Virus record (IMG/VR): IMGVR_UViG_3300017960_001054
Span: 62,001-126,000 of that record
Reading direction: 5' to 3' (one strand)
Length of the DNA stretch: 64,000 nt
Source: a virus
Positions within the stretch are counted from its first letter, which is position 1. Every line of letters begins with the position of its first letter. The notes under the pieces were generated by a model. That model was not told where the DNA came from. It worked only from the letters and a program-made list of their open reading frames with translations, and searched no databases. Of this stretch, positions 2,893-63,270 are shown in pieces. The translations under genes were made by a program, and so were the position numbers.

Positions 2893-2921
2893 GTAAACTC
2901 CTCGGCTGATTTCGCGTAGAG
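2893..2921 (+). promoter_or_regulatory. ECF-like promoter motif, copy A
   Basis: GTAAACT (2893-2899), 14 bases, then GCGTAGAG (2914-2921). It is one of five copies in this window with identical spacing. Read as an ECF sigma promoter it is AAC-N16-CGTA. The next ATG is at 2927, so a start point about 8 bases after CGTA would give a nearly leaderless message. It sits at the end of a 190-base intergenic stretch. Confidence 0.75.
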
Positions 2922-2926
2922 AGGTC

Positions 2927-3181
2927 ATGGGCAAACTATCTCCCATAGACCAAGCAACACAGCAGGAACGTCTGCGGTGTGCGGCTCAGATCTGCGAAGG
3001 CTGTCGTCAGCACGGCAAGCCGTTCTGGCGTGAAGGAGACGGCGGAGACAAGTACGCGCAACACCCACCCTACGAGGTATTCGTGTACGGGGATACGGGC
3101 TACCAAGTAACTTGTCTTGCTGAGAGGATCTGGGAGGTAGAGCTAGAGGAGGGAGAGAACGATGGCAGTCCTCAGTCGTGA
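2927..3181 (+). CDS. Hypothetical protein, 84 aa
   Basis: The gene begins five bases after promoter motif A, and no alternative start is near. If transcription starts where an ECF promoter would predict, the message is leaderless. A CEGCRQHGKPFW segment near residues 24-35 has a CxxC pair. The rest (HPPYEVFVYGDTGYQVTCL...) looks like a compact alpha/beta protein with an acidic C-terminus (VELEEGEND). I recognise no family. Its end overlaps the tiny basic ORF at 3162. Confidence 0.6.
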   Translation: MGKLSPIDQATQQERLRCAAQICEGCRQHGKPFWREGDGGDKYAQHPPYEVFVYGDTGYQVTCLAERIWEVELEEGENDGSPQS

Positions 3182-3233
3182 CAAGGCGCGTAAGGCAAGG
3201 GCACGAAAGCACGCGAAGCGTGTGTGGTGTTGA
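3162..3233 (+). CDS. Tiny basic peptide, 23 aa
   Basis: ATG 3162 follows GGAGGGAG and opens a frame MAVLSRDKARKARARKHAKR plus VWC. It overlaps the end of the gene before it and the GTG start of the gene after it. About half of its residues are Lys or Arg, so nucleic-acid binding or a leader-peptide role is possible. The good ribosome site and the overlaps on both sides are the only support for expression. Confidence 0.35.
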   Translation: MAVLSRDKARKARARKHAKRVWC

Positions 3234-3469
3234 CTCTCATGGATGAAGACCAACTGGTGGTGATCGATGAGAAGCCGTTTGTTGTCACCAAGAACGAAGA
3301 CGGCGATGACATCGCGATTCCGGTGGACGACAACTACGCTCTTGTTCGCATTCGTGAGGCAGAGAGCAACGCTGAAATTGCCAAGACAAAACGAACCAAA
3401 CACCGAGCAGACGCTCTGGTGTGGGTTGTGTTCTTTGCTGGTCTTTTCTCGTGGTGCGTACTGACGTGA
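3224..3469 (+). CDS. Small C-tail-anchored membrane protein
   Basis: About 81 residues, starting at GTG 3224 or, perhaps better, ATG 3239 (MDEDQLVVIDEKPF). The N-terminal part is acidic and soluble. The last 18 residues (ALVWVVFFAGLFSWCVLT) form one hydrophobic segment, so the protein should sit in a membrane with its N-terminus in the cytoplasm. A Lys/Arg-rich strip (AKTKRTKHR) just before the segment supports that topology. It lies directly upstream of the chaperonin gene. Function unknown. Confidence 0.6.
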   Translation: MVLTLMDEDQLVVIDEKPFVVTKNEDGDDIAIPVDDNYALVRIREAESNAEIAKTKRTKHRADALVWVVFFAGLFSWCVLT

Positions 3470-3497
3470 AGAATCCAGCCGCGGGTAGAGTAGCAGT

Positions 3498-5072
3498 GTG
3501 CGGCACGCTGCTCCCGTTCGTGTAGAACAGAGACGCGACAATCTCGTCAAGGGGGCGCTTCATCTCGCTCGCGCAGTGAAGGTCGCCTATGGCCCTCGCG
3601 GCGGCACGGTTCTGATCGCACGTCGGTCGCCGCACGATATCCTGACGACCCGCGATGGCATGACGATTGCCTGTGAAGTCATCCCTCCGCATCGGGTTGA
3701 GCGTCTCGGAGCTTCCGCTCTCCGACAAGCTGCGATTCGCGTCAACGAGGAAGTGGGGGACGGGACGAGCACGGCGATTCTGATCGCCGCCAGGCTCATC
3801 GAGATCGGACACAAGCACATTACGGCTGGGCACGATGCTGCCCTTTTCGTCCAGTCTCTTCGCCGCATGGCTTCTTGCACGCGTTCTCTCGATGCCTTGA
3901 AGATCGAAGTCACGGACAAGAAGATGCTGGAGCATCTGGCGCTGCACACGACGCGAGGCGACAAAGAGATCGCCTGGGCATTGGCTGAGGCTTCCATGCT
4001 CGTTGGGAAGACGGGGATGGTCGTGGTGGAGGATGGAAAGGGCGTCGAGGTAGAGATCGTTCCCAAGCAAGGGATGGAGCTAGACAAGGGCTGGGAGTCG
4101 TCTGACTTCTCCTCGGACGGACCATGGCAACAAGACGTGTGCCTCGTAGCCGTGGTCAATGGGACGGTGACGGAGTTTGGTGACATCGCTCCCATGATGG
4201 AGGCTGCTTCCCAGGTCGGTCCCGGCAACCTGCCTCTACTCGTCATCAGCCGCGGCATCTACGGTGAGGCGCTTCAAACGATGGTCACGAACCATCGCAA
4301 GGATGTGCTCCACTGCTGCGCAGTGCGATGCCCAGGGTACGGCCCGAAGCAACGGGCCTGGATGGACGACTTGGCTGCGCTGACCCAGGCGACGGTGGTC
4401 GAGCCGAAGATGAACATGAGGCTCAAGGACTTCGACTCCGGCTGGCTTGGCTCCGTTCAACAGGTGACGGCTACTGCCGACGACGCAACGCTCGTGTGTT
4501 TTGATGACGCCTACGAAAGCATCGAAAACCGAGTCAACGTTTTGCGCGGGGAACGTGAACGTTCGGAGTCGGCCCACGATCGCGAAAAGCTCACCGAACG
4601 TATCGCCAAACTCACGGATGGCTTCTGTCTGCTCCGGGTCGGAGGGGTCACGGAAGCTGCGGCGAAGGAGCGTCGAGGCCGCATCGAGGACGCGCTTCAC
4701 GCGGTGCGGGCAGCGCTCACAAGTGGGGTCGTGCCGGGTGCGGGAATGGCGTATTTGTGGCTAGCGGAGAAGGTGAAGGAAGGCAGCCCAGGTCTGGCCG
4801 CTCAGGCGCTCTACGAGGCTCTCAGAGAGCCTGTGAGGGCGTTGGCGCATAACACGGGGGGCGAACCCTCGGTGATTCTCCAGGGGCTCCAGGCGGCCCA
4901 GAAGCCCTGGTACGGATGGGATGCACAGACGCGCAAATACCGCGATTTGGCAGCCGAACCTGCATTGGTCGATCCTCTCGGGCTCGTGCGGGTGGTGGTG
5001 GAAGCGGCCGTGTCCGTGGCGTCAACTCTCTTGACGGCAGACGTGGCAATCACGAAGGTTGGTGACCCATGA
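3498..5072 (+). CDS. groL-like: GroEL-type chaperonin (group I Hsp60)
   Basis: The 524-residue protein aligns end to end with GroEL (about 548 aa). It keeps the ATP-binding VKVAYGPRGG loop, D53 in DGMTIA (GroEL D52), D88 in VGDGTSTA (GroEL D87), the GVVPGAG glycine loop, and D398 in IEDALHAVRA, the catalytic aspartate. The apical segment GEALQTMVTNHRK...DLAALTQATVV also aligns with GroEL. The GGM-rich C-terminal tail is missing. GTG 3498 gives the normal chaperonin N-terminus. It probably folds phage proteins in the cytoplasm; chaperonins are known from other giant phages such as phiEL. No GroES-like gene is visible here, so it may work without one or use the host's. Its stop overlaps the next start (ATGA). 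Confidence 0.93.
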   Translation: MRHAAPVRVEQRRDNLVKGALHLARAVKVAYGPRGGTVLIARRSPHDILTTRDGMTIACEVIPPHRVERLGASALRQAAIRVNEEVGDGTSTAILIAARLIEIGHKHITAGHDAALFVQSLRRMASCTRSLDALKIEVTDKKMLEHLALHTTRGDKEIAWALAEASMLVGKTGMVVVEDGKGVEVEIVPKQGMELDKGWESSDFSSDGPWQQDVCLVAVVNGTVTEFGDIAPMMEAASQVGPGNLPLLVISRGIYGEALQTMVTNHRKDVLHCCAVRCPGYGPKQRAWMDDLAALTQATVVEPKMNMRLKDFDSGWLGSVQQVTATADDATLVCFDDAYESIENRVNVLRGERERSESAHDREKLTERIAKLTDGFCLLRVGGVTEAAAKERRGRIEDALHAVRAALTSGVVPGAGMAYLWLAEKVKEGSPGLAAQALYEALREPVRALAHNTGGEPSVILQGLQAAQKPWYGWDAQTRKYRDLAAEPALVDPLGLVRVVVEAAVSVASTLLTADVAITKVGDP

Positions 5073-5890
5073 CCCTCGCGCGAACCAAGCTCGTACAGTA
5101 TCGCACGGCGAGCATCACACCCGACTTGACCGAGATCCTGCGCAAGCTGGAAACGCGCGCTGCCGAACACGGCAACTTGAAGATCCAGTTTTCCAGCACG
5201 AGCAAGAATTCGCATGGTTGGGATGTGCTGCGTGTGACTCCAGGCCCGACAGGATGCGCACCCGAATGGTCGATGGTTCCTGGCGGTCGAGAGGTCTATC
5301 TTCGCTGCGAATTTATCGAGGATGACGGTGAAGAAGAGACCCGTCGAAACCGTGAGCTAAACGTGCTCTGGGGGTTCGCTGTTCCTCTTGGGCTCACACC
5401 TTGGCTCCGGTATCCGCTTCCGGGCAAAGGCGATGACGTGTTTCACTATCTGGGGCCGTGGCAGATCCTTTACGACCATCTGCTCAGCGTTGGTCGTGGT
5501 GAGGAAGCGTGGCCTTCGGTGGCTTGCGCGGCTCAGGTTGATGTTGGCGCATGGACTGGGAATCACCCATTGGAGCGCTTTGTCCAGTCCCAGCTACATC
5601 GGATGGGCGTCAATTGTGGTCCCGTAGACGGCATCGTGGGACCGGTGACTTCGACGGCGATTCAACGTGTTGGCTTGCACGCGCGGCCCTTGACGGAAGT
5701 GGCCCAAAAGCTCCTCGCCATGCAGCGCCCGCAACCTCCCGAGACGGGTGAGGAGTGCGTGGGGCATATCATCGTACCTGGGAAGAATCTGTCTATAGTT
5801 TGCTCTGGTCAAGTGGCAGCGACACGGACAGCAACAGGCGCGGCTTTGGGGATTGAAGGCCCTGGCCGAGTCATCGTGGACATCCCATGA
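5069..5890 (+). CDS. Hypothetical protein with peptidoglycan-binding-like segment
   Basis: 273 residues, translationally coupled to the chaperonin gene by ATGA. The first 130 residues are unrecognised. Residues about 165-215 (LERFVQSQLHRMGVNCGPVD, then GIVGPVTSTAIQ) match the PF01471 peptidoglycan-binding pattern L-Q-x-x-L-x-x-x-G-x-x-x-G-x-V-D-G-x-x-G-P-x-T-x-x-A-I. The short tail (GHIIVPGKNLSIVCSGQVAA) is beta-rich. No signal peptide or catalytic domain is seen, so it is not an obvious endolysin. It could be a virion or wall-binding protein that is a client of the chaperonin upstream; that link is inference. Confidence 0.6.
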   Translation: MTLARTKLVQYRTASITPDLTEILRKLETRAAEHGNLKIQFSSTSKNSHGWDVLRVTPGPTGCAPEWSMVPGGREVYLRCEFIEDDGEEETRRNRELNVLWGFAVPLGLTPWLRYPLPGKGDDVFHYLGPWQILYDHLLSVGRGEEAWPSVACAAQVDVGAWTGNHPLERFVQSQLHRMGVNCGPVDGIVGPVTSTAIQRVGLHARPLTEVAQKLLAMQRPQPPETGEECVGHIIVPGKNLSIVCSGQVAATRTATGAALGIEGPGRVIVDIP

Positions 5891-6483: not shown

Positions 6484-6531
6484 CCCACCTATAGCTGACA
6501 GCGAGCCGCCTAGCGGCGTAGGGTGTTTCTA

Positions 6532-11160: not shown

Positions 11161-11200
11161 GTGGGTTTACCGTGGGAGGCTTCCGTGCTACAACATTCCC

Positions 11201-12755: not shown

Positions 12756-12764
12756 GGAGACAAC

Positions 12765-13730
12765 ATGTCTGAAATCGGTAGACGACGGTTCTTGCAGTTT
12801 CTCGGGTTGGGAGGCGCTACGGCAGCGACGCTCACGACCCCGATCCCTGTGTTTGGGAGCGATGATGGGCCGAAGCTGTGGACGCCAGACCAGAAGATCG
12901 TGGGCGGGCATCTCGTGCTCGTGCCGCCGAAGGACTGGAGCACTCAGAGATGGAAGCATCCGAGTGGGGGCCGGATCGAGCTTTCGACAGACGATCCCGA
13001 GAGTGGCGAGGCGATCGTGGGACAGGTTGGGCGAGCTTGGCCTACGGTAAGAGACAGGATCTACTGGGATTCGCGTAGAGAGCCGCTCATAACCGTGGGT
13101 CCGCAGCCGCTTCGGCTCAGCCTCGAACCCTCGACAACTCAGACCGTGGGGCAAGGTGTACAGGACAGGCCCCATACGCCTCATGCTGAGCACGCAATCG
13201 CGGTTCCGTTGTCCGAGAAGCACACGTCTGAGGAAGCGCATGCGGCGTTCTACAAAGGTGCGCAGGAGCTACGAAAGCGGTTCAAGGCAGAGTCCTTGAA
13301 GATTCTGGAGCGGGTGCCTGTTTCTTTGCGGCAAGATGCTCAGATCGTCACACTCGTGAACAACGCGGTCTACGCCGACGCGCTGTATGCTCCCGCGCTG
13401 TATGAGCAACAGGTTGCTGATCACGTACAACAACCGGGGTTCACGCTGCGTGCTGAGTGGTCGCAGTATGTGGTTGTGGGCGAAGTCGAGAGAAACGGCT
13501 GGCAAGTCTACAGCGAGACGGGTGAGTATCCCATCGAGATCCCGAGCGATCTCGACATGGAATTCTTGCTTCACATGGACAAGATGATGCTAACTAGCGT
13601 CACGTACAACATCAGCAACAACGATAGCTGGACGGTCGTCACCACTCCGGGCGGCAAGTGGACTATTCCTGGCGTCGAGCCGCAGACGCTCGGTAAGCCT
13701 ATCAAGAGACCGAAGATCCTCAAGCCGTGA
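12765..13730 (+). CDS. Hypothetical protein with a Tat-like signal peptide
   Basis: 321 residues; AAGGAG precedes ATG 12765. The N-terminus MSEIGRRRFLQFLGLGG fits the twin-arginine pattern (R-R-x-F-L-K/Q at residues 6-11), followed by a moderately hydrophobic stretch to about residue 30. That predicts export of a folded protein by the host Tat system, or an anchored protein if it is not cleaved. The body is not recognised; it includes a helical central part (EEAHAAFYKGAQELRKRFKA) and a beta-rich C-terminal third. It overlaps the following methyltransferase fragment by GTGA, an odd partner for an exported protein. Confidence 0.6.
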   Translation: MSEIGRRRFLQFLGLGGATAATLTTPIPVFGSDDGPKLWTPDQKIVGGHLVLVPPKDWSTQRWKHPSGGRIELSTDDPESGEAIVGQVGRAWPTVRDRIYWDSRREPLITVGPQPLRLSLEPSTTQTVGQGVQDRPHTPHAEHAIAVPLSEKHTSEEAHAAFYKGAQELRKRFKAESLKILERVPVSLRQDAQIVTLVNNAVYADALYAPALYEQQVADHVQQPGFTLRAEWSQYVVVGEVERNGWQVYSETGEYPIEIPSDLDMEFLLHMDKMMLTSVTYNISNNDSWTVVTTPGGKWTIPGVEPQTLGKPIKRPKILKP

Positions 13731-14311: not shown

Positions 14312-15771
14312 AGGTGATTACCCTCGCCCGAGCGCCGTTGCGCGGGGCGGTTGCTCAGTCTTGCATCGAGTGGAGCACGGGAGCGATCAACATCGACGGA
14401 ACACGCATTGCTGGACCAACATGGACGCGAAGCACGGAGTCGTTGGAGGACATTCGTGGCGGAAGGTACGGGTCTGCGTCGAAGGATCGCATCCCGGTTC
14501 CGCCACAAGCGATGCCGTCTGGGGGACGGTGGCCGTCCAACATGGTGCTCCAACACAAGCCGAGTTGCCGCCAGACGGGAACGACCACGGCTCCCGGCTA
14601 CATGATCAACCGCTGGACGGACGGAGCTAAGCCCTTCGGAGGCGGAGCCGGTCATCCTTACGAGGGTGAGAAGCAGCCAGATGAGAGCGTGACCGTGTGG
14701 GAGTGTGAAGAGGGGTGTGGGGTGGCGGGAGTTGATCAACAAGGTGGTCTTCTTACGAGCGGAAAACCTGTAGGCGCTCGTCATACGGGAGGGACTTTGT
14801 TGGCGGGCGGGGGTAACGAATACATGCTGACCGGCTACGGAGACACCGGAACTGCGTCTCGTTTCTTCAAGCAGGTACAGGAGACAGACATGCATGAGTT
14901 ACCACAGGAGTTGATCGACTACCTGGAGACGATGATCACTCCGCCAGATGGTGAAGTTTTGATCGTGTCCGACATGTCTGCTGTCAACTGGTCCGAGTAC
15001 GAGGACAACCAGCTACACGGCCTTTTGATCGTCGGGAAGCGGGCGGACGAATTCTCAGGCAACGACTACATGGAGCAGATCTGGCGAGTGCTCCGTCCGG
15101 GTGCTCACGTCATGTTGATCGCATCCGATGAGGAGCCCACGGGACACACCGGGGCGTGTGCTCTGGAGGACAAGGGATTCGAGATCCGCGACTCTATCTT
15201 GCTCGTGCAAGAGCCCGGACGCATCCACTACGTTGCCAAGGCGGCAACGAAGGAGCGCAACGCGGGCATTGTTCCGTTTGAGCGCAAGGTCAAGGAGAAG
15301 CGCTTGTTCCCTAAGCCTGAGCATATGGATGATATCGAGCTGGAGTTTGCAGAGGTCAAGACGGAGGAAGAGATCGCCGCGTGGGTTGAGGAAGGTGCTT
15401 CGCGAATGGAGATCCCGAAGGACCATCGGCAGTGGTTTGACGAGCGCGAGGTCGAGATCGTCAAGAAGAAACAGAATGACCATCCAACCATAAAGGCCAA
15501 GGATCTCCTCCGTCGTTTGCTTGGCGACTTGCCGGAAGGTTCACTTGTGGTCGATCCGTTCATGGGCTCGGGCTCGACGGGCATCGCGTGTGTCGAGGCC
15601 GGGATGGCCTTCACGGGGATCGAGCTTGAGATGGAAAGCCTCCAAATTGCCGATGCTCGTGTCCGGCATTGGGATTCTGCCGAGCTACGTCCTTGGGCCG
15701 CAGAGGTAGTTAGCGAGGCAGAACAGCCAAAGCGCAAAAAGCGCAGTTTCTTGCAGTTGCGCGAAAAGTAA
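14308..15771 (+). CDS. Methyltransferase C-terminal piece (recognition-like domain plus motif I)
   Basis: 487 residues from GTG 14308. Residues 1-190 repeat the recognition-like region of the previous gene (LARAPLRGAVAQSC, GAINIDGTRI, GGRWPSNMVLQH, ASRFFKQV). Residues about 200-330 look like a decayed methyltransferase front half: IWRVLRPGAHVMLIA and FEIRDSILLV are kept, but the DPPY position is lost (LLIVGKRAD). The C-terminus has HPTIKAKDLLRRLL and VVDPFMGSGSTGIACVEAG (AdoMet motif I). With the DPPY piece at 10672 this would make up a full set of motifs across separate genes. The residues after 460 are basic (KRKKRSFLQLREK). Confidence 0.75.
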   Translation: MKVITLARAPLRGAVAQSCIEWSTGAINIDGTRIAGPTWTRSTESLEDIRGGRYGSASKDRIPVPPQAMPSGGRWPSNMVLQHKPSCRQTGTTTAPGYMINRWTDGAKPFGGGAGHPYEGEKQPDESVTVWECEEGCGVAGVDQQGGLLTSGKPVGARHTGGTLLAGGGNEYMLTGYGDTGTASRFFKQVQETDMHELPQELIDYLETMITPPDGEVLIVSDMSAVNWSEYEDNQLHGLLIVGKRADEFSGNDYMEQIWRVLRPGAHVMLIASDEEPTGHTGACALEDKGFEIRDSILLVQEPGRIHYVAKAATKERNAGIVPFERKVKEKRLFPKPEHMDDIELEFAEVKTEEEIAAWVEEGASRMEIPKDHRQWFDEREVEIVKKKQNDHPTIKAKDLLRRLLGDLPEGSLVVDPFMGSGSTGIACVEAGMAFTGIELEMESLQIADARVRHWDSAELRPWAAEVVSEAEQPKRKKRSFLQLREK

Positions 15772-15796
15772 ACTTCCGCCCGGATTCGGCGTAGAG
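15768..15796 (+). promoter_or_regulatory. ECF-like promoter motif, copy B
   Basis: GTAAACT (15768-15774), 14 bases, GCGTAGAG (15789-15796). It starts at the stop codon of the methyltransferase piece and drives the zinc-ribbon gene at 15816. AAGGAG lies between the box and the ATG. Confidence 0.78.
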
Positions 15797-15815: not shown

Positions 15816-16007
15816 ATGAATTTCCTGACCATCGAGCTTCCCATCCCCGAGGCTCCCGAACCGGCCGAGGTTTGTGAGGTTTGTGGCGGCCCTGGTGTTT
15901 CGCTGGGCTCTCTGGGGTCGCGGGAGTATTTTCGTTGCCGTCACTGTGGCAATCAGTGGTCGGCCGGGGAAGAGGATCACAGCTACGAAGTTAGCTTCAA
16001 GGTGTAG
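15816..16007 (+). CDS. Small zinc-ribbon protein
   Basis: 63 residues behind promoter motif B and an AAGGAG ribosome site. CEVCGG (about residues 20-25) and CRHCGNQW (about 42-49) form a four-cysteine zinc ribbon. The N-terminal FLTIELPIPEAPEPAE and C-terminal DHSYEVSFKV flank it as beta-strands. It is too small to be an enzyme; a nucleic-acid or protein adaptor role is likely. Having its own copy of the conserved promoter suggests it is made in a regulated burst. Confidence 0.7.
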   Translation: MNFLTIELPIPEAPEPAEVCEVCGGPGVSLGSLGSREYFRCRHCGNQWSAGEEDHSYEVSFKV

Positions 16008-16334: not shown

Positions 16335-16627
16335 TGGCAGAGATCATTCCCTTCGACGCTCTGATCAGCAAGGTCGATAGCGGCCGACTTCAGAGATCGT
16401 CGTGTCTCACGACGCGGATCGTTTATGCGGACGTGGAGAAGGGGATGTTTCGCGGCCTTGTTGATGCCTCCAAACCAGAGAATCCTCCCTACGAAGTCAA
16501 GATTGATGCCAAGGCTCGGGTATGTCGCTGTACCTGTGAGGACTTCAAACGGAAGGCGGCTCCCTGCAAGCATCTAGTGGCTTTCGCAAGGGTAGCGCGA
16601 GCGATGACGAACGGGATGAGTTTGTAA
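16334..16627 (+). CDS. SWIM zinc-finger protein
   Basis: 97 residues from ATG 16334 (TGATG overlap). Residues about 65-88 (RVCRCTCEDFKRKAAPCKHL) match the SWIM signature C-x-C-x(n)-C-x-H: C at CRC/CTC, then CKH. SWIM fingers bind DNA or protein partners and occur with SNF2 ATPases and transposases. The N-terminal 60 residues are an unrecognised small domain. The window has an SNF2 ATPase and a degenerate SNF2 lobe without such a finger, so it might act as a partner in trans; that is speculation. Confidence 0.75.
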   Translation: MAEIIPFDALISKVDSGRLQRSSCLTTRIVYADVEKGMFRGLVDASKPENPPYEVKIDAKARVCRCTCEDFKRKAAPCKHLVAFARVARAMTNGMSL

Positions 16628-16652
16628 ACTTCTTGCCGAATCTCGCGTAGAG
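16624..16652 (+). promoter_or_regulatory. ECF-like promoter motif, copy C
   Basis: GTAAACT (16624-16630), 14 bases, GCGTAGAG (16645-16652). It begins at the stop codon of the SWIM-finger gene and lies 19 bases before the ligase ATG at 16671. Confidence 0.78.
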
Positions 16653-16670: not shown

Positions 16671-17846
16671 ATGGCTATCAGAGACATCGAGGAATTGGTC
16701 GCTACGCTGGAGGCTGCCAGCGAAGCCTACTACAACGGCGACCCCATCATGAGCGACGCGGAATTCGACGCGCTCGAAGATGAGCTTCGTAGTCTCGCGC
16801 CGAAGCACAAGTACTTCAAGCGCGTCGGAGCGAAGGCTTCCAAGACAAAGTGGGCCAAGGTCAAGCACGACGCTCCGATGGGCTCGCTGCTCAAGGTCAA
16901 CACGGAGAAGGAGCTACACGCCTGGTACGACGCCTGCATCGGAGACCTGAAAGCCTACGCGAAGGGCTTGAAGGGTCAGGCGCGAAAGGACTTCTTGGCT
17001 CGGGTCGAGGAAGCCCAACTAGTCGTGAGTGAGAAGCTGGATGGCGCATCGGTCTCCCTCGTCTACAAGGACGGCAAGCTCATCCATGCATTGCTGCGAG
17101 GCGAGGGTGATGAGGGCGAGGACATTCTGTCCAATGTGATCAAGATGCTAGGTCTCCAGAAGGTTCAAAAGGGCTTCACGGGCTGGCAGCGTGGCGAGAT
17201 CATCTTGGGCAAGAAGCTGCACACCAAGCATCTGGGCGAGTACAAGAGTCGTCGCAACGCTGCTGTTGGCATCTCGCGCCGAGAGTCGGATGCGTCAGCC
17301 TGCAAGTATCTGACGGTCAGCCACTACCAGGCGATTCGCAAGGGCGGCAAGGCGATCAAAGACAAGATCACCGAGTTTCTCATGCTGAAGAAGCGCATGT
17401 GTGCCACGCCGTTCTTCAAGCTAGTAGACGGTCCCGATGGTGTCGTGGAGATCTACGAGGAGTACGTCGAGGGCGCTCGCGCAGCGCTCGACTACGACAT
17501 CGATGGGCTCGTTGTGGAATTCAATGACCCGGAGCTAATGGAGGTTCTGGGTGATTCGAGCGGTCGGCCCAAGGGAGCGAGGGCGTTCAAGTTTCCGCAT
17601 GTAAAGAAAATCACGCGGTTGAGAGATATTCGCTGGCAGGTTGGCTTGTCGGGTCGTGTGACGCCCGTGGCCGAGTTTGATCCGGTCGATCTAGCGGGAG
17701 CGACACTAGCCCGAGCCAGTCTTGCTACGGCTAGGCACGTTGCCAAGCTGAGACTTTTCCCAGGTTGTCGTGTTCTTGTGTCACGCAGGAACGAAGTTAT
17801 CCCGCGAATTGAAAAGAACGTGGACGAAGGTATCGATAATGAGTGA
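16671..17846 (+). CDS. ligA (5' part): NAD-dependent DNA ligase, N-terminal half (LigA-N)
   Basis: 391 residues. It holds the LigA domain Ia (YYNGDPIMSDAEFDALEDEL), the adenylation motif K122-L-D-G in SEKLDGASVSL, LLRGEGDEGED, the DYDIDGLVVEF motif IV and KGARAFKFPHVK motif V. The OB fold follows up to the RNEVIPRIEKN strand. It stops at that point, so the Cys4 zinc finger, helix-hairpin-helix and BRCT domains are missing from this chain. They are encoded at 18743. The nick-sealing adenylation core is complete, so self-adenylation is plausible; sealing may need the second half. Its stop overlaps the ATG of the endonuclease gene (ATGAGTGA). Confidence 0.92.
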   Translation: MAIRDIEELVATLEAASEAYYNGDPIMSDAEFDALEDELRSLAPKHKYFKRVGAKASKTKWAKVKHDAPMGSLLKVNTEKELHAWYDACIGDLKAYAKGLKGQARKDFLARVEEAQLVVSEKLDGASVSLVYKDGKLIHALLRGEGDEGEDILSNVIKMLGLQKVQKGFTGWQRGEIILGKKLHTKHLGEYKSRRNAAVGISRRESDASACKYLTVSHYQAIRKGGKAIKDKITEFLMLKKRMCATPFFKLVDGPDGVVEIYEEYVEGARAALDYDIDGLVVEFNDPELMEVLGDSSGRPKGARAFKFPHVKKITRLRDIRWQVGLSGRVTPVAEFDPVDLAGATLARASLATARHVAKLRLFPGCRVLVSRRNEVIPRIEKNVDEGIDNE

Positions 17847-18756
17847 GCGTAAGTGCCTACGATGCGGGTGCGCCATCGCCCATCTTCATTTCAATGCTAA
17901 GCGCTGTCCTCCGTGCGCGCGCGAGGTAGCTGAAGCAAAGGAACGCCAGCGTAAGAAAATTGTCTTGGCACCAGATGCCGTTACCTGTCCTGTGTGCAAG
18001 AGGCGAATGAATTGCATAACGGCAGGACATTTCCGCAAGCATGGCTATCCGACAGCACAAGTATTCAAAAGGACCTTTTCTCTAGACACTTTGAAAGCTC
18101 CTTCGCTCTGTCAAGATCACTCTCAGTACATGCGGAAAAATTCGCCCACAAAAGGTAAGACTCGTACTCTTTCGGAAAGACGGCGGATGCGTCAAAACCG
18201 CCGGGGGAAAGGGGTAGGTGTCTGCGGCAAGTATGAGCGAACGCCAGAAATCCGAGCCCGTATTTCAGCAGGAGTAACTAAGTATCTCTTATCAAGAGAG
18301 GGAGATTTTGCACGAGGGTGGTTTGTCTATTCGGAGAAACTGGACGATGCGGTCTACGTTCGCTCTTCTTGGGAAGAGCGTGTTGTGGCGGTGTTTGATC
18401 TTCATCCTTGTGTTGAGTGGTTTGAAACTGAGCCTTTCTCGATTCCATACTTCTTCGCGGGAGTTACAAGACGCTACGTGCCTGATTTTCTCCTTTGGCT
18501 GGAGGGAGGGATAAAGGAAGTGTGGGAAGTAAAGCCTGAGGAGTTTTTGAAGTTGGCCAAGAACCAGGCCAAGATTGCGGCTCTGAATGATTACACTCGT
18601 CAGAGGGGGTACAACGCAAGAGTTGTGAGGCTTGTGGATATAGAGGGGATGGAGATGCAGGTGGGTCTACGACCGTGGAGAGGTTGTGGCCAGCCTTGGG
18701 TGCGGCTTGACGATCCGAGTTATCGCCCAGGAGGAGAAGCAAATGCCAAACCATAG
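17839..18756 (+). CDS. Homing endonuclease, PD-(D/E)XK (TnsA-like) type, inserted in ligase
   Basis: 305 residues. The N-terminus has two zinc knuckles (CLRCGCAIAHL...CPPC) and a MucR/Ros-like finger, CPVCKRRMNCITAGHFRKHG. A NUMOD3-like helix follows (KGKTRTLSERRRMRQNRRG). The nuclease core has SSWEERVVAVFDLHP (active-site Glu), TRRYVPDFLLWLEGG (Asp), then VWEVKPEE (E-x-K), the pattern of PD-(D/E)XK endonucleases such as TnsA or the very-short-patch-like homing families. The gene lies exactly between the two halves of the ligase, overlapping both. It is more AT-rich than the ligase halves. There is no intein or intron sequence around it. Confidence 0.82.
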   Translation: MSERKCLRCGCAIAHLHFNAKRCPPCAREVAEAKERQRKKIVLAPDAVTCPVCKRRMNCITAGHFRKHGYPTAQVFKRTFSLDTLKAPSLCQDHSQYMRKNSPTKGKTRTLSERRRMRQNRRGKGVGVCGKYERTPEIRARISAGVTKYLLSREGDFARGWFVYSEKLDDAVYVRSSWEERVVAVFDLHPCVEWFETEPFSIPYFFAGVTRRYVPDFLLWLEGGIKEVWEVKPEEFLKLAKNQAKIAALNDYTRQRGYNARVVRLVDIEGMEMQVGLRPWRGCGQPWVRLDDPSYRPGGEANAKP

Positions 18757-19777
18757 CTATTTTAAGCCTCCGAAGCGCTGCCCCGTATGTCGGACGACAC
18801 TGGAGAGAGACGGCGCGTACCTCAAGTGCCCGAACGATCTCACGTGTCCGGCCCAGGTAGAGGGGAACATCAAGCGGTGGGTCACGAAGCTGGGAATCAA
18901 GGATCTGGGTGACTCGCTGATCAAGGCTTTGGTCGAGCACGGCAACATGAGGGAGCCTGCCGATCTGTACCATCTGCGGCCGAAGGTACTGGCTAACTTC
19001 CGCACGAGCGGCAAGAAGGTTGGCTTCTCGTCAGCGAACCGGATCGTGGACAACATCCAGGCAACGCGGGAGCTACCGCTGGCGCGGTTCGTGGGTTCGC
19101 TCGGAATCGACATGTGCTCGCGGTCTGTCTGTGAGACCATCTGCGAAGCGGGTTTCGACACGCTGGGCAAGATGGTGGACGCGACCGTGGCAGATCTCAT
19201 GACGGTCCCCAAGATGGGCAAGAGCAAGGCTGAGGCTTTTGTGGAGGGTCTTCAGGCCCGCAAGACATTCATCAACAACCTCCTCGACGCTGGTGTGCGC
19301 ATCAAGAAGCCGATCGTGGGCAAGATGACCGGCAAGAGCTTCTGTTTCACGCAGGTTCGCGACAAGGATCTGGAGCGCAAGATCGAGGCTCAGGGCGGCA
19401 TCGTGAAGGGCAACTTCAGCCGAAGCCTGTCCTACGTCGTGACGAGCAAGGCAGGGCTCACGAAGTCTGGAAGCAAGCTGGACAAGGCTCGGCAGCACGA
19501 TATTCCCATCATCGATGTGGATGAGCTTGAGGACATGCTAGGATCTACGCGGAGGTTTGGCGGCTTGCCGCTGCTTCCTGATTCTGTACCGTGGGGCACA
19601 ATCTACGGTCTGCCCTACGATTTGCCTGACGGTCGGCGGGTGTGGCTGTGCCGGGGCAAGTACAATCGTGTACGCTTCTACACAGACGACGGAGAACAGG
19701 TGGGCCCTGAGCAATCCAACGTGGTTCCTGCTGTGGCTTTTGCTATAGCGCAGGGATGGCGACAAGCTCATGGATGA
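18743..19777 (+). CDS. ligA (3' part): NAD-dependent DNA ligase, C-terminal half (LigA-C)
   Basis: 344 residues from ATG 18743, overlapping the endonuclease end and preceded by AGGAGAAG. It starts a few residues before the LigA zinc finger (CPVCRTTLERDG...CPNDLTCPAQ). The helix-hairpin-helix region follows (LGIDMCSRSVCETICEAGFD and DLMTVPKMGKSKAEAF), then a BRCT domain (MTGKSFCFTQVRDKDLERKI to about residue 265). The last 75 residues (RFGGLPLLPDSVPWGTIYGL...) are an extension not found in usual LigA. Joined to the N-half it would give a nearly normal ligase with no visible loss at the junction. No trans-splicing sequence is visible, so the two halves probably associate. Confidence 0.9.
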   Translation: MPNHSYFKPPKRCPVCRTTLERDGAYLKCPNDLTCPAQVEGNIKRWVTKLGIKDLGDSLIKALVEHGNMREPADLYHLRPKVLANFRTSGKKVGFSSANRIVDNIQATRELPLARFVGSLGIDMCSRSVCETICEAGFDTLGKMVDATVADLMTVPKMGKSKAEAFVEGLQARKTFINNLLDAGVRIKKPIVGKMTGKSFCFTQVRDKDLERKIEAQGGIVKGNFSRSLSYVVTSKAGLTKSGSKLDKARQHDIPIIDVDELEDMLGSTRRFGGLPLLPDSVPWGTIYGLPYDLPDGRRVWLCRGKYNRVRFYTDDGEQVGPEQSNVVPAVAFAIAQGWRQAHG

Positions 19778-21529: not shown

Positions 21530-24500
21530 GTGGCTCAGTCGTTTCTCAAGCTAGCCCGAGAGAAGGCACGGCCAACCGTCGAGCGTCGTGAGTGGATGGA
21601 CGACGCGGTGATGGAATTGGTCACTGCCGAGATGCTTCCTGGTGTGATCGACAAGTGTATCGAGGCTGGCCTGTATGCTGCCGACCTGGAGACGACGGGG
21701 CTCGACGTTCGGGTTTTCGAGGGACGTACCAGGGACCAGATCGTTGGCGCGTGTCTGAGCCACGATGGCGTTCACGGCTACTATGCGCCGGTACGCCACA
21801 AGGGCGCAGGAGCCAAGCACAACATCCCCGTCAGCTTGTTTGAATCCGAGCTACGGCGGTTGTTCGCGTCGAAGGCGAAGCCGATCTTCCACAAGGGGAA
21901 ATTCGATCACGAGTTGCTCCAATTCAGTGGCGGAGAGGCCCTCGCTGAATTCGATGATCCGAATGGCTGGGAAGACTCGCTGATTCTGGCTTACCTGTAC
22001 AACAACAAGCTGGAGCGGATTGGCCTCAAGTACCTGGCGGACCAATTCTTCAACCCACATGTCGAGGAGGATCGCAAGCGACGCAAGAACGGCGAGAAGG
22101 TCCCGTCGTACATGATCGAGCTATGGGAGTTGTTCCCAGACGGCAAGGAAGGAGAGCACTACGATTTCTCCGAGCTAGACCCCGGATGGGAGCCCGTTGT
22201 CTGGTACGGCAGTGGTGATGCGCTTTTCACGTATCGGCTGTTCAAGCTGTTTCATCCCAAAGTGGTCAAGCCCGAAGAAGGCGTCAGCCAGCGCACCATC
22301 TACAACATCGAGAAGATGTGCTGCACGGCGACGCGGTGGATGGAGCGATGTCGAGTCCACACCAATCAGGACCGGGTTGCTGAGCTTATCCGGCTTGGGC
22401 AGAAGGAGTTGTTCGATTCGATCAAGGCCATCTACGACTTCTGCGAGGAAGCCTGCGGGCGAGACATCGCTCCGGCGTGGTGGCATGTCTTGGCGAAGGG
22501 AGTGCCCTTCGAGGGGGACAAGGAGGATCTTCCTCCGTTGTTCAACTCCGAGGATGCGAAGCAGGACTACAGGATTCAGATCGAGGAAGCCAAGAAGGTC
22601 GTAGAGCACAATCGCAAGCGTCCCACATGGGACCGGTCCGAAACATTGGCCGAGGTCGAGGAGAGACAGAACAAGAAGGTCACGAAGAGCCTGTCGGATG
22701 GAAAGACATATGAGTTTCCTTACCAGTGTGACGTGATGAGCGCGCGGCGGCTTGGGCCGTTGTTTGAGGAGATGGAGATTCCTGGCCTGAAGCGCACGGA
22801 GGAGTCCAAGCAGGTCATGACTTCGGCGGCCGAGTTGGATCGTTTGACCGACCTGCACGGGGAGACTTTCCCGTTCATGGCACGGATCAAGCGCTTTCGT
22901 GAGGTCCAAACAGCCTTGTCGCGTTTCCTGTTGCCGATGCGGGATAACGTATGTCCCGAGGACGGGACGCTCAAGATCGACTTTGAGGGATGGCGCACGG
23001 ACACGGGTCGGTTCTCTACACCATCGGACAAGAACCCGAAGCGCAACGGCGGCACGAGCTATATGATGCACGCGACGCCAGCGACGTATGATCCGAAGCG
23101 TCCTGAGTGCCTCCGTCGTTTACGTGAATGCATTACGGCTCGACCTGGCCGCATCTTGTGCTCAATCGACTACTCTGGCGAAGAGATCAGGATCATCACG
23201 AACCTCAGTCGTGAGCCCAAGTGGATCATCGAGCATTTCCGTTGCAGCGAATGTGGCAGGACGTTCGATCAAGGCGATGGGAAGAACACACCGGAGGCTC
23301 CTCCACACTTCTGTCCGCGCTGCGGTTCGGACAAGATTGGAGACATCCACACGCTGTCCACGATCGCGTTTTACGGAGAGGATTCGCAGAAGGACAAAAA
23401 GCAATTCAAGCAACTGAGGAAGCAGGCCAAAGCATGCAATTTTGCTTTATGTTACGGCGGTGCTGGGAGTGCCGTACAGCGCTCGACGGGTGTTGACGAG
23501 AACGAAGGTTGGCGCATCTATCGACAATTCACGGCGACGTATACCCAGCTTCAGAGTTGGATCAAGGGGCAGCACGAATTCGTCAAGCAGAATGGATACG
23601 TGCTCACGGCATTTGGGCGGCGTTGTCCACTTCCCGACATCCACATGCCGAAGAGGGATCCGAGGACGGGACGCGATAACGGATTCTTCATCTCCAAGGC
23701 AAAACGGAACGCAGTGAATGCGCCGATCCAGGGGTGTTTGAATTCGGATACGCGGATTCCTACGTCTCTTGGTCTTAGGCGCATCGCAGACCTACAAGAT
23801 CAGACTTTTCAGGTGTGGACAGGTACGGCTTGGCAAGACGCTAGAGCTTTCGCTTCGGGGAAAAAGCGACTTTGCATGACTGTGTTTGACTCTGGGCGTG
23901 TCTTGAAAACAAGCCCGGATCATCGATTTCGTGTCTGGACTGAAGAAGGGTTTGAGTGGGTGAGGCAGGAGGATTTGACGCCAGAGTGTTGGGTCGCCTG
24001 CAATGCGGAAGCTATCGAGTTGCCAGAACCAACCTACGAGTCACACAATTGGAAAGGATTTGGCATCCAGGGAAACAGCCCAGTGTTGTGGGAATTTCTG
24101 GGGATGGTTTATGGGGATGGTTCTCTTTACCACGATGGGTTGAAGGTCTATGTGGGCGAAGCTAACGAGAGTATCGCGACTGATTTTTTGGCGGAGGAGT
24201 ATGCACGAGCGTGGGTGAACAAGCTCAACGATGCCCTTGGTGTGGGAGCGACGTGTCGGAAAAAGAAACGCCCTGAGAATGAGAAGCATAAACGGCCCAC
24301 GTGGGAGATCTGCATCTACAACACGGCTTTTCGTAGGTTTTGTTGTGAGGTCTTGGGGGTAGAAGATCAGAACACGTGGACGAAGCGTTTTCCCTCAGCG
24401 GTTTGGAGCGAGTCAATCAGCAACAGAGCAGCTTTCCTGCGTGGATACTTCAGCGCGGACGGGGGCATGAGTCCATCAGGGGACGCAGCGTCGGTGAGGA

Positions 24501-25728
24501 GTGTATATCTAGCGCTTCTGCAAGATGCCCAAGCGTTGCTGCACTCTATCGGAATTCGGGCGTCCTATCGGTCGAGATGTCTGCGTGTGTTTCAAGCCGG
24601 CCAAACGTTCGATTTTGGAAAACCCCACCAGCTCACGAAAGCGCAGGCGATCGAGAACAGAGAGATCCCATGGATGGGGCAGTGGTATCGTCTGCCCACG
24701 GATCTCGTTTGCCAGATAGGCGCCTGCGTGCGGCAATCGTCTGTGTATAAGGCGCTCCCACGTGAGCAAAAATCGGCTGTGTTGAGGCTATGTGTTGGGT
24801 CTGGTAGCAAGCCTCAGTGCCTCAGGTATCTCAAAAGGTTGCCCCCTGACGAGGTCCCTGTTTCCATTTGGGAAGCGTTAAAGTACGACTATGAGACTCC
24901 GGTCGTGACGGAAGACTCCACCACGATGGTGGATATGTACGACATTGAGGTGTTTGACGATGAGCACGCTTTTGTAGCGGATGGGGTCGTAGTCCATAAC
25001 AGCGGGGCTGACATCCTGAAGCTGGCGATGTCTCTGATCTACAAGGAGTGCAAGAAACGCGACTGGCTGGAGAAGGTCTACATGGTCGCGTGCATGCATG
25101 ACGAGATCGTTTTCGAGATCGTGACGGACATCGTGGAGGAAGCGCTCAACGTCATCATGCCGTTGATGATTCGCAACTCGGCAATCCTCAAGTTGAAGTG
25201 GCCGATTCCGTTGATGCTCGACTGCGAGATGGGGTACGACTGGATGGTTCCCTGGAACCTTGTGGAGTACACTTCAGGTAAAGCGGAATGGCCGGAGGAG
25301 ATCAAGTCGTTCTTTCCCAAGGCCGTTGCCGGATCGGCAGCGGTTACGCCAGATGCCGGAGATCCAGATCCGATCGCTCCGGTTCAACTCACCAACCGTG
25401 CTGAATCTGCAAATGTTCGTCTGGGTGTCGTGGAGCCGCCTCCAGATTCAGTCCCAGATTCGGCCCCGCCAGACCCGGCCCCGCCAGATTCGGTCCCGGT
25501 CAGTGTTCCTGATTTCAAGGCAGGCGATGTCTACGTCCACAGACTACGAAAGCCATTGCGGCAGGGTACAGTAGAGAGTCTGGCAGAGGTTCTCTACAAG
25601 TGCCGAAACAGAGGTTCTCATCCCATCGAGATTCGTTCGTCAGATGGGGAACACGTGCTTTGGAAGAGTACGGACTTCACGATCAATCCCGTGCAGTTTG
25701 CCGTACTCGCCGACTATAAGGGTATCTG

Positions 25729-25729
<1 letters not shown>
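21530..25729 (+). CDS. polA-like: Family A DNA polymerase (Pol I-like) with intein
   Basis: 1399 residues from GTG 21530 (AAAGGAG upstream); 977 after removal of the 422-residue intein. The 3'-5' proofreading domain has DLETTGLD (D52, E54), [11 protein letters not shown] and [10 protein letters not shown]. Polymerase motifs are [10 protein letters not shown] (motif A, about 546), [12 protein letters not shown] (O-helix, motif B), NAPIQG just before the intein, and [10 protein letters not shown] (motif C) after it. A zinc ribbon (CSECGRTF...CPRCGSDK, about 571-600) is inserted between motif A and the DIHT segment, which standard Pol I lacks. After the palm come a Pro-rich linker (about 1300-1325) and a small C-terminal domain. 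This is the phage replicase; no 5'-nuclease domain is present. Confidence 0.95.
23735..25000 (+). mobile_element. LAGLIDADG intein in DNA polymerase
   Basis: 422 codons. It begins at Cys ([10 protein letters not shown]) after NAPIQG and ends VVVHN before Ser (SGADILKL). Block B is TSPDHRFRV. The final block is [17 protein letters not shown]. Two LAGLIDADG-like helices are visible ([11 protein letters not shown] and [11 protein letters not shown]), so the homing endonuclease may be active. Splicing residues C1, block-B His, penultimate His, terminal Asn and +1 Ser are all present. Confidence 0.95.
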
Positions 25730-32743: not shown

Positions 32744-32772
32744 ATCTACGCGAGATCACTTGAAAAGTATAA
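32744..32772 (-). promoter_or_regulatory. ECF-like promoter motif, divergent copy F (weak -35)
   Basis: On the minus strand: TTATACT (32772-32766), 14 bases, GCGTAGAT (32751-32744). The -10 half and the spacing match the other copies; the -35 half matches 5 of 7. It reads toward the operon starting at 32733. Confidence 0.6.
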
Positions 32773-32773: not shown

Positions 32774-32802
32774 GTAAACTTCCGGGAAAAATCCGCGTAG
32801 AA
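32774..32802 (+). promoter_or_regulatory. ECF-like promoter motif, copy D
   Basis: GTAAACT (32774-32780), 14 bases, GCGTAGAA (32795-32802). It is back to back with copy F, one base apart, making a divergent promoter pair for the two gene groups. Confidence 0.78.
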
Positions 32803-56827: not shown

Positions 56828-56840
56828 GCCACTAACCGGA

Positions 56841-56873
56841 AAGGGCACGAGGTACGTGCCTCGTGCCCTTTTC
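56841..56873 (+). terminator. Rho-independent terminator
   Basis: A perfect 12-bp stem (AAGGGCACGAGG, 56841-56852; complement 56859-56870) with a 6-base loop, then TTC after four T. It follows the giant fibre gene. Confidence 0.85.
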
Positions 56874-56904
56874 TAAACCCAAACCCATATCAGATCAGAC
56901 CCAA

Positions 56905-57471: not shown

Positions 57472-57477
57472 GTAGCC

Positions 57478-62445: not shown

Positions 62446-63227
62446 TCTCTGAAGCAGTATCCAACGAGCGGAATTGATGAGTTTTGGATCTGCTCGGGGT
62501 ACTGGTCCGGCTGGTTTGCAGACGGCATGCAGTGCATGTCTGGAGGACACAGGTCGTTTTGGACATCGCAATGCTCAGTGCAGCAGAGATTTGCGTTGCA
62601 TACCCCGTCTGGAAAACCACCTGAGGCTAAACTAGCTCCCGTCTTGCAGCCCGAGTTTCCTTGCGTTGGATCGCCAAATTCGCCCCCAGGATCGTCGCCC
62701 GTGTAGATCTGGCACAGCCATTGGTAGCTGTCGTAGTCAGGATCCCAGCCCATGTAGGTGCAGGTTAGGGCATTGCCGCAAGGCGGCGTACCAGCATCTT
62801 CCCACAAGGGATGACAAGGCTGGTCAGGGCCAAGCGGGCCAGCACTTGTTGAGTCGGTCGTGTCTCCTGTAGTCGGGTCCTCTGTTCCTGTAGTCGGGTC
62901 CTCTGTCGGCGTATCGGAGCCGGTCTCGGTCGGCGCGTCCGTGTTGCTGTCGGACGTGTCGGTGGTCTCATCCTCGGTCGTGCCGCCTTCGGTTGTGGCC
63001 GGGTCCTCGGTGGTTTCCTCGCCGGAGCTATCTCCATCGTCAGCGCCATGTGTGGTGTCATCCCCGGTGGCGCTTGAGGAATCTTCATCTCCCGACGACG
63101 CCTCATCTTCGGTTCCGCTTTCGAGGCCGGAGTCTGTCATGTCATCGCTGGGATAGAATTCGCCGCGACAACCGATGGTGGTTGCAAGGGCGAGAAGGGT
63201 GATGCGGAGGCCGCATTTCATGGTCAT
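62442..63227 (-). CDS. Myxobacterial-type Cys-rich lipoprotein
   Basis: 261 residues, ATG 63227 after AAGGAG. The signal (MKCGLRITLLALATTIGC) ends in a lipobox. About 110 residues of nearly pure Ser/Thr/Asp/Glu/Gly follow, then a Cys-rich domain (CHPLWEDAG, CGNALTC, CNANLCC, CDVQNDLCPPDMHC). That plan is typical of Nannocystineae-type lipoproteins, so the gene is probably host-derived. It is expressed from its own copy of the phage promoter motif, against the direction of the fibre genes, and its 3' end overlaps the fibre stop. On the host surface it could alter receptors or block superinfection; in the virion it is unlikely. Confidence 0.8.
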   Translation of the reverse strand: MTMKCGLRITLLALATTIGCRGEFYPSDDMTDSGLESGTEDEASSGDEDSSSATGDDTTHGADDGDSSGEETTEDPATTEGGTTEDETTDTSDSNTDAPTETGSDTPTEDPTTGTEDPTTGDTTDSTSAGPLGPDQPCHPLWEDAGTPPCGNALTCTYMGWDPDYDSYQWLCQIYTGDDPGGEFGDPTQGNSGCKTGASLASGGFPDGVCNANLCCTEHCDVQNDLCPPDMHCMPSANQPDQYPEQIQNSSIPLVGYCFRD

Positions 63228-63241
63228 TTTCTCCTTAGCCC

Positions 63242-63270
63242 TTCTACGCAGGATTCAGCCAATAGTTTAC
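63242..63270 (-). promoter_or_regulatory. ECF-like promoter motif, copy E
   Basis: On the minus strand GTAAACT (63270-63264), 14 bases, GCGTAGAA (63249-63242). It drives the lipoprotein gene, whose ATG is 15 bases on, with AAGGAG between. Confidence 0.78.

What the first reader, a model, noticed from the sequence alone, without database searches (positions are those of the whole stretch)
2893..63270. Five exact copies of a phage-specific ECF-like promoter
GTAAACT-N14-GCGTAGA occurs at 2893, 15768, 16624, 32774 and, on the minus strand, 63270. Spacing is 14 each time, an A is fixed at spacer position 10, and each lies just before a start codon. Expressed as AAC-N16-CGTA it matches the layout of ECF (group IV) sigma promoters such as Bacillus SigW (TGAAAC-N16-CGTA). 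Either the phage brings its own sigma factor or it uses a host stress sigma. I know of no described phage class that uses this promoter type.
Basis: partly seen in the sequence, partly recalled or inferred. Interest (0 to 1): 0.82.

Follow-up and report, generated by a model that had tools for sequence, protein, structure and literature searches.

The report
Huge phage's own sigma-factor promoter code
A very large bacterial virus carries about forty copies of one two-part "start here" signal in front of its genes, and most likely makes its own switch protein that directs the host's transcription machine to those signals.

Summary
GTAAACT-N14-GCGTAGA occurs 5 times exactly in the window (0 in 100 shuffles); a sixth site lies at 32745-32772 (-). 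The window belongs to a tailed phage also held as a 497,194-bp contig (99.998% identical). That contig has 19 exact copies and 41 strong sites by weight matrix; 40 of 41 lie outside called genes and 28 of 41 end within 25 nt of a same-strand gene start (random 7%, opposite orientation 0 of 41). Layout: GTAWAC-N16-CGTAGA, an ECF-like -35/-10 pair. At 294 kb of that contig, outside the window's record, lies a divergent two-domain (region 2 + region 4) sigma-factor gene with relatives in other huge phages. In a 618-kb relative a different dyad (GTAAAAA-N12-CATGNA) precedes 5 of the 9 orthologues of genes carrying this motif (p=1.6e-7; one of the five is weak). Same genes, changed boxes: best read as a phage-encoded sigma with a drifting recognition code, acting on host RNA polymerase. 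Which factor reads the motif is inferred, not shown. Salmonella phage 7-11 (sigma gp47, GTAAtg-16-aCTA) is a known parallel, so the kind is not unprecedented; sigma family, scale and box turnover extend it.

The parts
2893..2920 (+). promoter site (GTAAACT-N14-GCGTAGA) before an 84-aa ORF starting at 2927
   Evidence: exact match, 0 in 100 shuffles; matrix score 37.3 bits; ORF has no Pfam match
15768..15795 (+). promoter site before a 63-aa ORF starting at 15816; overlaps the last 4 bases of the upstream DNA-methylase gene
   Evidence: (33.0 bits)
16624..16651 (+). promoter site before the NAD-dependent DNA ligase adenylation/OB gene starting at 16671
   Evidence: 41.8 bits; ligase by Pfam/PHROGs; orthologues in the 618-kb and 188-kb contigs carry their own phage's dyad
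16671..17846 (+). NAD-dependent DNA ligase, adenylation and OB domains (promoter target)
   Evidence: PF01653 E=9.3e-31, PF03120 E=9.6e-20
   Evidence: 2 mismatches; 33.7 bits in the full-genome matrix; start codon at +11
32774..32801 (+). promoter site, back to back with the minus-strand site, before a 93- or 88-aa ORF (start 32806 or 32821)
   Evidence: 38.0 bits
63243..63270 (-). promoter site before a 261-aa ORF (start 63227 on -) whose N-terminus reads by eye like a lipoprotein signal
   Evidence: 37.0 bits; no Pfam match for the ORF

Best explanation
The motif is the promoter of an apparently non-structural (probably middle-type) gene class of a ~0.5-Mb tailed phage. Box 1 (GTAWAC) is a -35 element, box 2 (CGTAGA) a -10 element, 16 bp apart. 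Transcription would start about 6-9 nt beyond box 2, so many of these messages should be leaderless or have leaders of under about 15 nt. The boxes are read by a phage-encoded, divergent ECF-like sigma factor (G001:293800-294927, 375 aa: N-terminal part of unknown nature, then region 2 at about 182-270 and region 4 at about 287-364) bound to host core RNA polymerase. Region 4 would read GTAWAC and region 2 CGTAGA. Orthologous sigmas in related huge phages control an overlapping gene set through different boxes, so sigma and boxes drift together. Shown: the sites, their placement and orientation, the sigma homology and predicted fold, and, against one relative, the shared gene set with changed boxes. 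Inferred: which sigma reads which motif, timing, start points and host core use.
For: Sites: 41 strong sites (22 bits or more; best reversed-sequence control 11.4) in 497 kb. 40 of 41 overlap called genes by 4 bases or fewer, although only 11.4% of the genome is intergenic by the same gene calls; 28 of 41 have a same-strand called gene start within 25 nt (random placements 7.2%; opposite orientation 0 of 41). 37 of 41 have a start codon of an ORF of 30 aa or more within 45 nt (no control for this count). Sigma: phmmer to a solved sigma-H, E=4e-4; family profile of 9 sequences to the same chain, E=3.5e-9 across regions 2-4. Sigma70_r2 matches, all below cut-off, in 6 of 9 members, E 6e-5 to 0.025; phiEco32 gp36, shown by experiment to be a sigma (PMC8948821, passages), scores E=0.002 on the same model. 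AlphaFold2: two confident blocks, about 190-260 and 291-360 (block means 81-93), joined by a low-confidence linker. Of the 50 VIA-align rows listed, all but two (a UPF0122 protein and EsrB) are sigma chains, T4 gp55 or the sigma-position chain of initiation complexes: region 4 on CnrH (Z 8.2), SigD, SigR, SigW; region 2 on SigK, RpoE, sigma-E (Z 6.9-7.4). Shared gene set: of 226 reciprocal orthologue pairs between G001 and the 618-kb G013, 9 carry this motif, 6 carry G013's GTAAAAA..CATGNA, 5 carry both (p=1.6e-7); 0 of 9 coincide with either of G013's two other classes. Restricted to 67 pairs with 30 bp or more of upstream space in both: 8, 5, 5, p=5.8e-6. In LR745208: 2 of 2, p=0.002, 0.010 restricted. 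No RNA polymerase domain PF04998 in any of the 3 huge phages searched. Precedent: phage 7-11.
Against: No transcript start, binding or expression datum exists. The phage has other candidates: a second region-2-like paralogue (G1_56, 280 aa) and a conserved tandem region-4 protein (G1_569). One of the five shared orthologue sites scores only 15.4 bits, inside the control range (15.3-17.5), and 4 of the 9 G001 genes lack the G013 motif. The LR745208 dyad also precedes orthologues of 2 of 5 genes behind another G001 class (CTAT..GTAG; p=0.019), so in that phage the correspondence is not specific. Against the 188-kb contig the overlap is 2 of 3, p=0.19, and 0.36 when restricted. In all 22 class-by-class comparisons were made, uncorrected. 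Two contigs with sigma relatives do not fit neatly: the 143-kb one shows no such dyad and the 312-kb one an unlike CCCCC..TTTGATAATA. Foldseek E-values are weak (0.09 and up); pTM of the whole model is 0.32 and Z near 7-8 can arise in helical proteins. No sigma-70-like early class was found in G001 (5 of 290 regions against 2 reversed), so how the sigma is first made is open.
Confidence: 0.7

Rival explanations
1. A host ECF (stress) sigma factor reads the motif; the phage has adapted its promoters to it, and its own sigma serves something else.
For: The layout is that of ECF promoters (recalled consensus); no sigma gene lies in the window or its 141-kb record; the host is unknown.
Against: The extended consensus GTAWACTYYN6AATYYCGCGTAGA, present 7 times in G001, has 1 match in a collection of one genome for each of 84,980 bacterial and archaeal species, about what chance gives (my estimate about 1). 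The 497-kb contig carries its own sigma gene. Orthologous genes in the relative G013 carry different boxes. A host outside the collection, or with a looser consensus, is not excluded.
Confidence: 0.12
2. The motif is a phage promoter, but it is read by another phage factor: the paralogue G1_56 or the tandem region-4 protein G1_569, possibly together with host sigma.
For: G1_569 has two region-4-like domains (PF04545 E=7.4e-13), is 53-66% identical in LR745208 and G013 and sits beside a gene with weak KOW/antiterminator matches. G1_56 has a region-2-like stretch 35% identical to G1_366 over 81 residues.
Against: G1_56 hits only members of the G1_366 family in the other phages; G1_569 lacks a recognisable region 2 and is not found in the 188-kb contig that carries GATCAT..GAGTAGA (a fragment, so weak). 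Of the five candidate proteins compared, only G1_366 (and, through it, G1_56) has a match in all of G001, G013, LR745208 and the 188-kb contig.
Confidence: 0.13
3. Not a promoter: an operator or other binding site that happens to lie before genes.
For: No transcription data; the motif is long and strict.
Against: Two unlike, non-palindromic boxes at fixed spacing, facing the gene (0 of 41 with a gene start within 25 nt in the opposite orientation), at the distance a promoter needs; changed boxes before orthologous genes in the relative.
Confidence: 0.05

Closest known systems
Salmonella phage 7-11 sigma factor SaPh711_gp47 and its late promoters (GTAAtg-(16)-aCTA)
   Same: Phage-encoded sigma with regions 2 and 4; bipartite promoter with a GTAA box and the same 16-bp gap (here GTAAAC-(16)-CGTA); promoter locations but not sequences conserved with the related phage phiEco32 (PMC8948821, passages).
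   Different: 8 promoters there against about 41 predicted here; late genes there, apparently non-structural genes here; 90-kb genome against about 0.5 Mb; no detectable sequence relation between the sigmas in a profile comparison (hhalign E=0.24).
Escherichia phage phiEco32 sigma gp36 (tAATGTAtA promoters)
   Same: Phage-encoded sigma directing host RNA polymerase to middle and late genes (PMC8948821, passages); called an ECF sigma factor in a GenBank note.
   Different: Single-element promoter and no recognisable region 4 (PMC8948821, passages); hhalign with the family profile E=0.14.
Sigma factors of group 2 jumbo phages (PMC7824862, passages)
   Same: Huge phages without their own RNA polymerase encode sigma factors.
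   Different: Those are described as a minimal single-HTH type and a type close to RpoD; this one is an ECF-like region 2 + region 4 protein with an extra N-terminal part. The tandem region-4 protein G1_569 may be nearer to their minimal type.
Bacterial ECF (group IV) sigma promoters such as Bacillus SigW (consensus recalled)
   Same: AAC-N16-CGTA layout; predicted fold of regions 2 and 4.
   Different: Phage gene; longer consensus; third base of the AAC box is A in only 31 of 44 sites (T in 10). No anti-sigma factor was looked for.

Membership tests
Sigma-70 superfamily, ECF-like (region 2 + region 4 only): protein G1_366 | Region 2 sequence and fold | tested here: met
   Family profile to sigma-H 3mzy E=3.5e-9; PF04542 E=0.023 alone, below its cut-off; VIA-align to SigK, RpoE, sigma-E Z 6.9-7.4
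Sigma-70 superfamily, ECF-like (region 2 + region 4 only): protein G1_366 | Region 4 helix-turn-helix after a short linker | tested here: met
   Residues 287-364 on CnrH Z 8.2, SigD, SigR, SigW; one of nine members, L168, hits PF08281 at E=2.8e-4, below cut-off
Sigma-70 superfamily, ECF-like (region 2 + region 4 only): protein G1_366 | No region 1.1 or region 3 | tested here: inconclusive
   No Pfam match to other sigma regions, but about 180 N-terminal residues of unknown nature, in part (about 40-80) modelled with fair confidence
Sigma-70 superfamily, ECF-like (region 2 + region 4 only): protein G1_366 | Binds core RNA polymerase and initiates at the motif | not testable with these tools
   -
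ECF-type promoter class | Two conserved boxes, AAC and CGT, 16-17 bp apart, facing a gene | tested here: met
   WAC-N16-CGT in 44 sites: A 31 (T 10), A 44, C 44; C 44, G 44, T 43 of 44; 0 of 41 with a gene start within 25 nt in the opposite orientation
ECF-type promoter class | Transcription start 5-10 nt beyond the -10 box | not testable with these tools
   no transcript data
phiEco32/7-11 phage sigma factors | Sequence homology to gp36 or gp47 beyond the sigma fold | tested here: not met
   hhalign E=0.24 and 0.14, probability under 1%

The most novel reading that the evidence does not exclude
A family of huge phages carries one orthologous ECF-like sigma whose promoter code has been rewritten in each lineage while many of the genes it controls stay the same: GTAWAC..CGTAGA in the window's phage, GTAAAAA..CATGNA in the 618-kb phage, CTAAAA..GCCGATAGG in LR745208, GGATCAT..GAGTAGA in the 188-kb contig. 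Each would be a self-contained, orthogonal sigma-promoter set of dozens of sites.
Probability: 0.5. Interest if true: 0.75.

Novelty: new variant of a known kind. Interest (0 to 1): 0.62.

Why it matters
The best-studied jumbo-phage transcription is that of phages that bring their own RNA polymerase, although most jumbo phages are said to lack one (PMC13282480, passages). Here the genome sequence alone exposes a promoter class of about 41 sites, its likely sigma factor, and an overlapping gene set with different boxes in a relative. That makes sigma-promoter co-evolution directly testable by swapping orthologous sigmas, offers candidate orthogonal sigma-promoter pairs, and gives a way to read expression classes of uncultured huge phages.

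Tried and rejected
Sigma domains in the 141-kb record: none at E up to 10; found only in the 497-kb contig. The motif in LR745208: 0 matches of a slightly relaxed pattern with up to 1 mismatch; this first looked like 'no motif, no sigma', but a BLAST of called genes then found a sigma relative there (W1_145) and another dyad, so that argument was dropped. Single exact matches in 8 of the 12 viral records examined were taken as chance; the other records were not examined. Sites at 18.7, 18.3 and 14.6 bits were dropped before the 41-site counts; two of these three lie inside genes. The one strong site inside a called gene (264113, 34.7 bits) has an ATG at +10 opening 128 aa in the listing, so my gene call may start too early. 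The orthologue test used a slightly looser site set: 47 hits, 42 intergenic, 38 genes. In the sigma alignment, loci L164/L165 (same protein) and L172/L173 (identical to L171) were left out as duplicates. The RNA polymerase test used the one domain PF04998.

Sigma-70-like early promoters as a class: 5 of 290 regions in G001 against 2 in reversed sequence, no class seen. A sigma-28-like element before the sigma gene of G001 (AAAAGTT-N12-CCGATA; the only upstream region with 1 mismatch or fewer, 0 reversed) was seen by eye first and tested afterwards, so it is only a lead. The sigma gene W1_145 of LR745208 has a TTGACA-N16-TATATT element within 70 nt upstream, 11 of 12 matches, a score reached by 2 of 308 regions; this fits early expression by host sigma-70 but is one case.

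Foldseek alone was not conclusive. What is said about print rests on searches in an open-access library; none of the listings or passages seen describes this motif or this sigma family in huge phages, but subscription papers and preprints were not searched.

Full report
WHAT IS THERE. A sixth site, with two changes in the first box (TTATACT), lies on the minus strand at 32745-32772, back to back with the plus-strand site at 32774. The window is bases 62001-126000 of a 141,560-bp viral record with six exact copies and none in the reversed-pattern control; two more sites there have one mismatch at the same spacing.

THE PHAGE. A scan of viral contigs listed the motif many times in a 497,194-bp contig, IMGVR_UViG_3300017971_000185 (G001). 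The window's record is 99.998% identical to it over its whole length. G001 holds 19 exact copies, 0 in the reversed control. Three further contigs with 9, 4 and 3 copies carry site sequences also present in G001 and are probably pieces of the same phage; the other eight of the twelve records examined have one match each, which I take as chance. The genome has a terminase large subunit (phrog_2, E=6.6e-26) and a UvsX-like recombinase, family A DNA polymerase, DnaB-like helicase, split NAD ligase, a chaperonin and a PARP-like protein: a huge tailed phage.

PLACEMENT. A weight matrix grown from the 19 exact copies gives 44 sites above every reversed-sequence control (best control 11.4 bits); 41 score 22 bits or more. 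Consensus: tGTAWACTtYY-n5-aAWYYCGCGTAGArrgg. Of the 41, 40 overlap called genes by 4 bases or fewer although only 11.4% of the genome is intergenic by the same calls, 28 have a same-strand called gene start within 25 nt against 7.2% for random intergenic placements, and 0 have one in the opposite orientation. In a listing of all sites, 37 of 41 have a start codon of an ORF of 30 aa or more within 45 nt, many at +9 to +11 or +15 to +21 (no control). By 25-kb bins the class is rare where long genes lie (1 site at 75-125 kb, 0 at 400-475 kb) and commonest where genes are short (10 sites at 225-275 kb). Targets include NAD ligase, a PARP-like protein, an FHA protein and a divergent pair with weak AAA and clear VWA matches.

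THE SIGMA FACTOR. The 141-kb record has no sigma domain. G001 has G1_366 (293800-294927, 375 aa). Relatives were found in a 618-kb contig (G013), in 188-, 143- and 312-kb contigs and smaller ones, and in LR745208. Evidence that it is a sigma factor: phmmer to sigma-H 3mzy E=4e-4; the nine-member profile to the same chain E=3.5e-9 from region 2 to region 4; PF04542 matches, all below the cut-off, in 6 of 9 members, comparable with the E=0.002 of phiEco32 gp36; a model with two confident blocks, about 190-260 and 291-360, and a low-confidence linker, whose listed structural matches are, in 48 of 50 rows, sigma chains, T4 gp55 or the sigma-position chain of initiation complexes. Foldseek itself gave weak E-values (0.09 and up); its ten best rows are all chain F of bacterial RNA polymerase complexes. 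None of G001, G013 and LR745208 has a PF04998 RNA-polymerase domain, so the sigma should work with host core enzyme; this is inference.

ONE GENE SET, CHANGED BOXES. Counting spaced word pairs upstream of genes shows that the large phages have their own dominant dyads: LR745208 CTAAAA-N15-CCGATAGG (60 hits, 55 intergenic); the 188-kb contig GGATCAT-N14-GAGTAGA (73 hits, 53 intergenic); G013 three classes: TTGAC..TATCACATCGG..CATAGT (82 hits, 76 at 400-475 kb), GTAAAAA-N12-CATGNA (30 hits, 22 intergenic, spread over the genome), and CGGTTTTC..CTATnG (28 hits, 25 intergenic). Among 226 reciprocal orthologue pairs of G001 and G013, 9 carry the window's motif, 6 carry GTAAAAA..CATGNA and 5 carry both (p=1.6e-7); 0 of the 9 coincide with either other class. 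Among the 67 pairs with at least 30 bp of upstream space in both genomes the figures are 8, 5 and 5 (p=5.8e-6); one of the five, G013 gene 417, scores 15.4 bits, within its control range of 15.3-17.5. Against LR745208 the overlap is 2 of 2 (p=0.002; 0.010 restricted), but that dyad also precedes orthologues of 2 of 5 genes behind another G001 class (p=0.019). Against the 188-kb contig it is 2 of 3 (p=0.19; 0.36 restricted), and that contig against G013 is 3 of 3 (p=0.032; 0.12 restricted). Twenty-two comparisons were made, uncorrected. So the first comparison is strong, the second suggestive, the last two weak; the ligase gene and the AAA gene carry their own phage's dyad in three phages. Same genes with changed boxes is what a co-evolving phage-borne reader predicts.

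WHY NOT A HOST SIGMA. A 28-base extended pattern present 7 times in G001 occurs once in a collection holding one genome for each of 84,980 bacterial and archaeal species, close to my estimate of chance (about 1). A host not in that set, or with a looser consensus, is not excluded.

WHAT IS STILL OPEN. Which of G1_366, its paralogue G1_56 and the tandem region-4 protein G1_569 reads the motif; when it acts; how the sigma is first expressed (a sigma-70-like element precedes the LR745208 gene, a sigma-28-like one the G001 gene). Two sigma-bearing contigs do not show a matching dyad.

AGAINST WHAT IS KNOWN. The nearest case is Salmonella phage 7-11: sigma gp47, eight promoters GTAAtg-(16)-aCTA, starts 6-9 bp from the element, and promoter locations but not sequences conserved with phiEco32 (PMC8948821, passages; earlier promoter prediction in PMC4331800, passages). 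In the same notation the motif here is GTAAAC-(16)-CGTA. The sigmas are not detectably related in a profile comparison. Jumbo phages without RNA polymerase are known to carry sigma factors (PMC7824862 and PMC13282480, passages), and a huge phage with its own sigma-70 has been reported (PMC7162821, passages). I therefore file this as a new variant of a known kind: a phage-encoded ECF-like sigma with its own promoter code, here at the scale of about forty predicted promoters and with signs of code turnover between relatives.

Noticed in passing
LR745208.1 (L139-L163), e.g. record position 12951: The 485-kb phage carries 60 hits (55 intergenic) of a very long dyad, CGATTTCnCTAAAA..CCGATAGGG, close to the sigma-28 (FliA) consensus as I recall it: 26 upstream regions match TAAA-N14..16-GCCGATAA with 1 mismatch or fewer, 0 in reversed sequence.
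   Followed up: partly
618-kb contig G013, 400-475 kb (L128-L131): 82 hits (74 intergenic; some are one place read on both strands) of TTGAC..TATCACATCGG..CATAGT, 76 of them at 400-475 kb, often 8-9 nt before a start codon: an early-type promoter class with a conserved spacer that may be an operator.
   Followed up: partly
G001, e.g. 122351, 306381, 432843, 450948: A second promoter-like class, CGnTAGnnnGnCTAT (26 of 26 intergenic), resembling G013's CGGTTTTC..CTATnG; possibly late promoters.
   Followed up: partly
G001:432228-432839 (L101): A 203-aa protein with two sigma region-4-like domains next to a gene with weak KOW/antiterminator matches, 53-66% identical in LR745208 and G013; looks like a conserved transcription factor.
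   Followed up: partly
window 16671-19777: NAD-dependent DNA ligase is split into two genes (adenylation/OB, then zinc finger/HhH/BRCT) with an ORF at 17770-18756 carrying a TnsA-like endonuclease domain between them.
   Followed up: partly
window 21530-25729: Family A DNA polymerase with an intein-like stretch holding a LAGLIDADG homing endonuclease.
   Followed up: no
L010:900-2597 (just before and into the window): A phage protein with a PARP catalytic domain and a weak WGR match, itself behind a one-mismatch copy of the motif; its orthologue in the 618-kb phage carries that phage's dyad.
   Followed up: partly
G001:293750-293800, upstream of the sigma gene: AAAAGTT-N12-CCGATA, the only upstream region in G001 with 1 mismatch or fewer to TAAAGTT-N11..14-CCGATA; resembles the LR745208 dyad (noticed by eye first).
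   Followed up: partly
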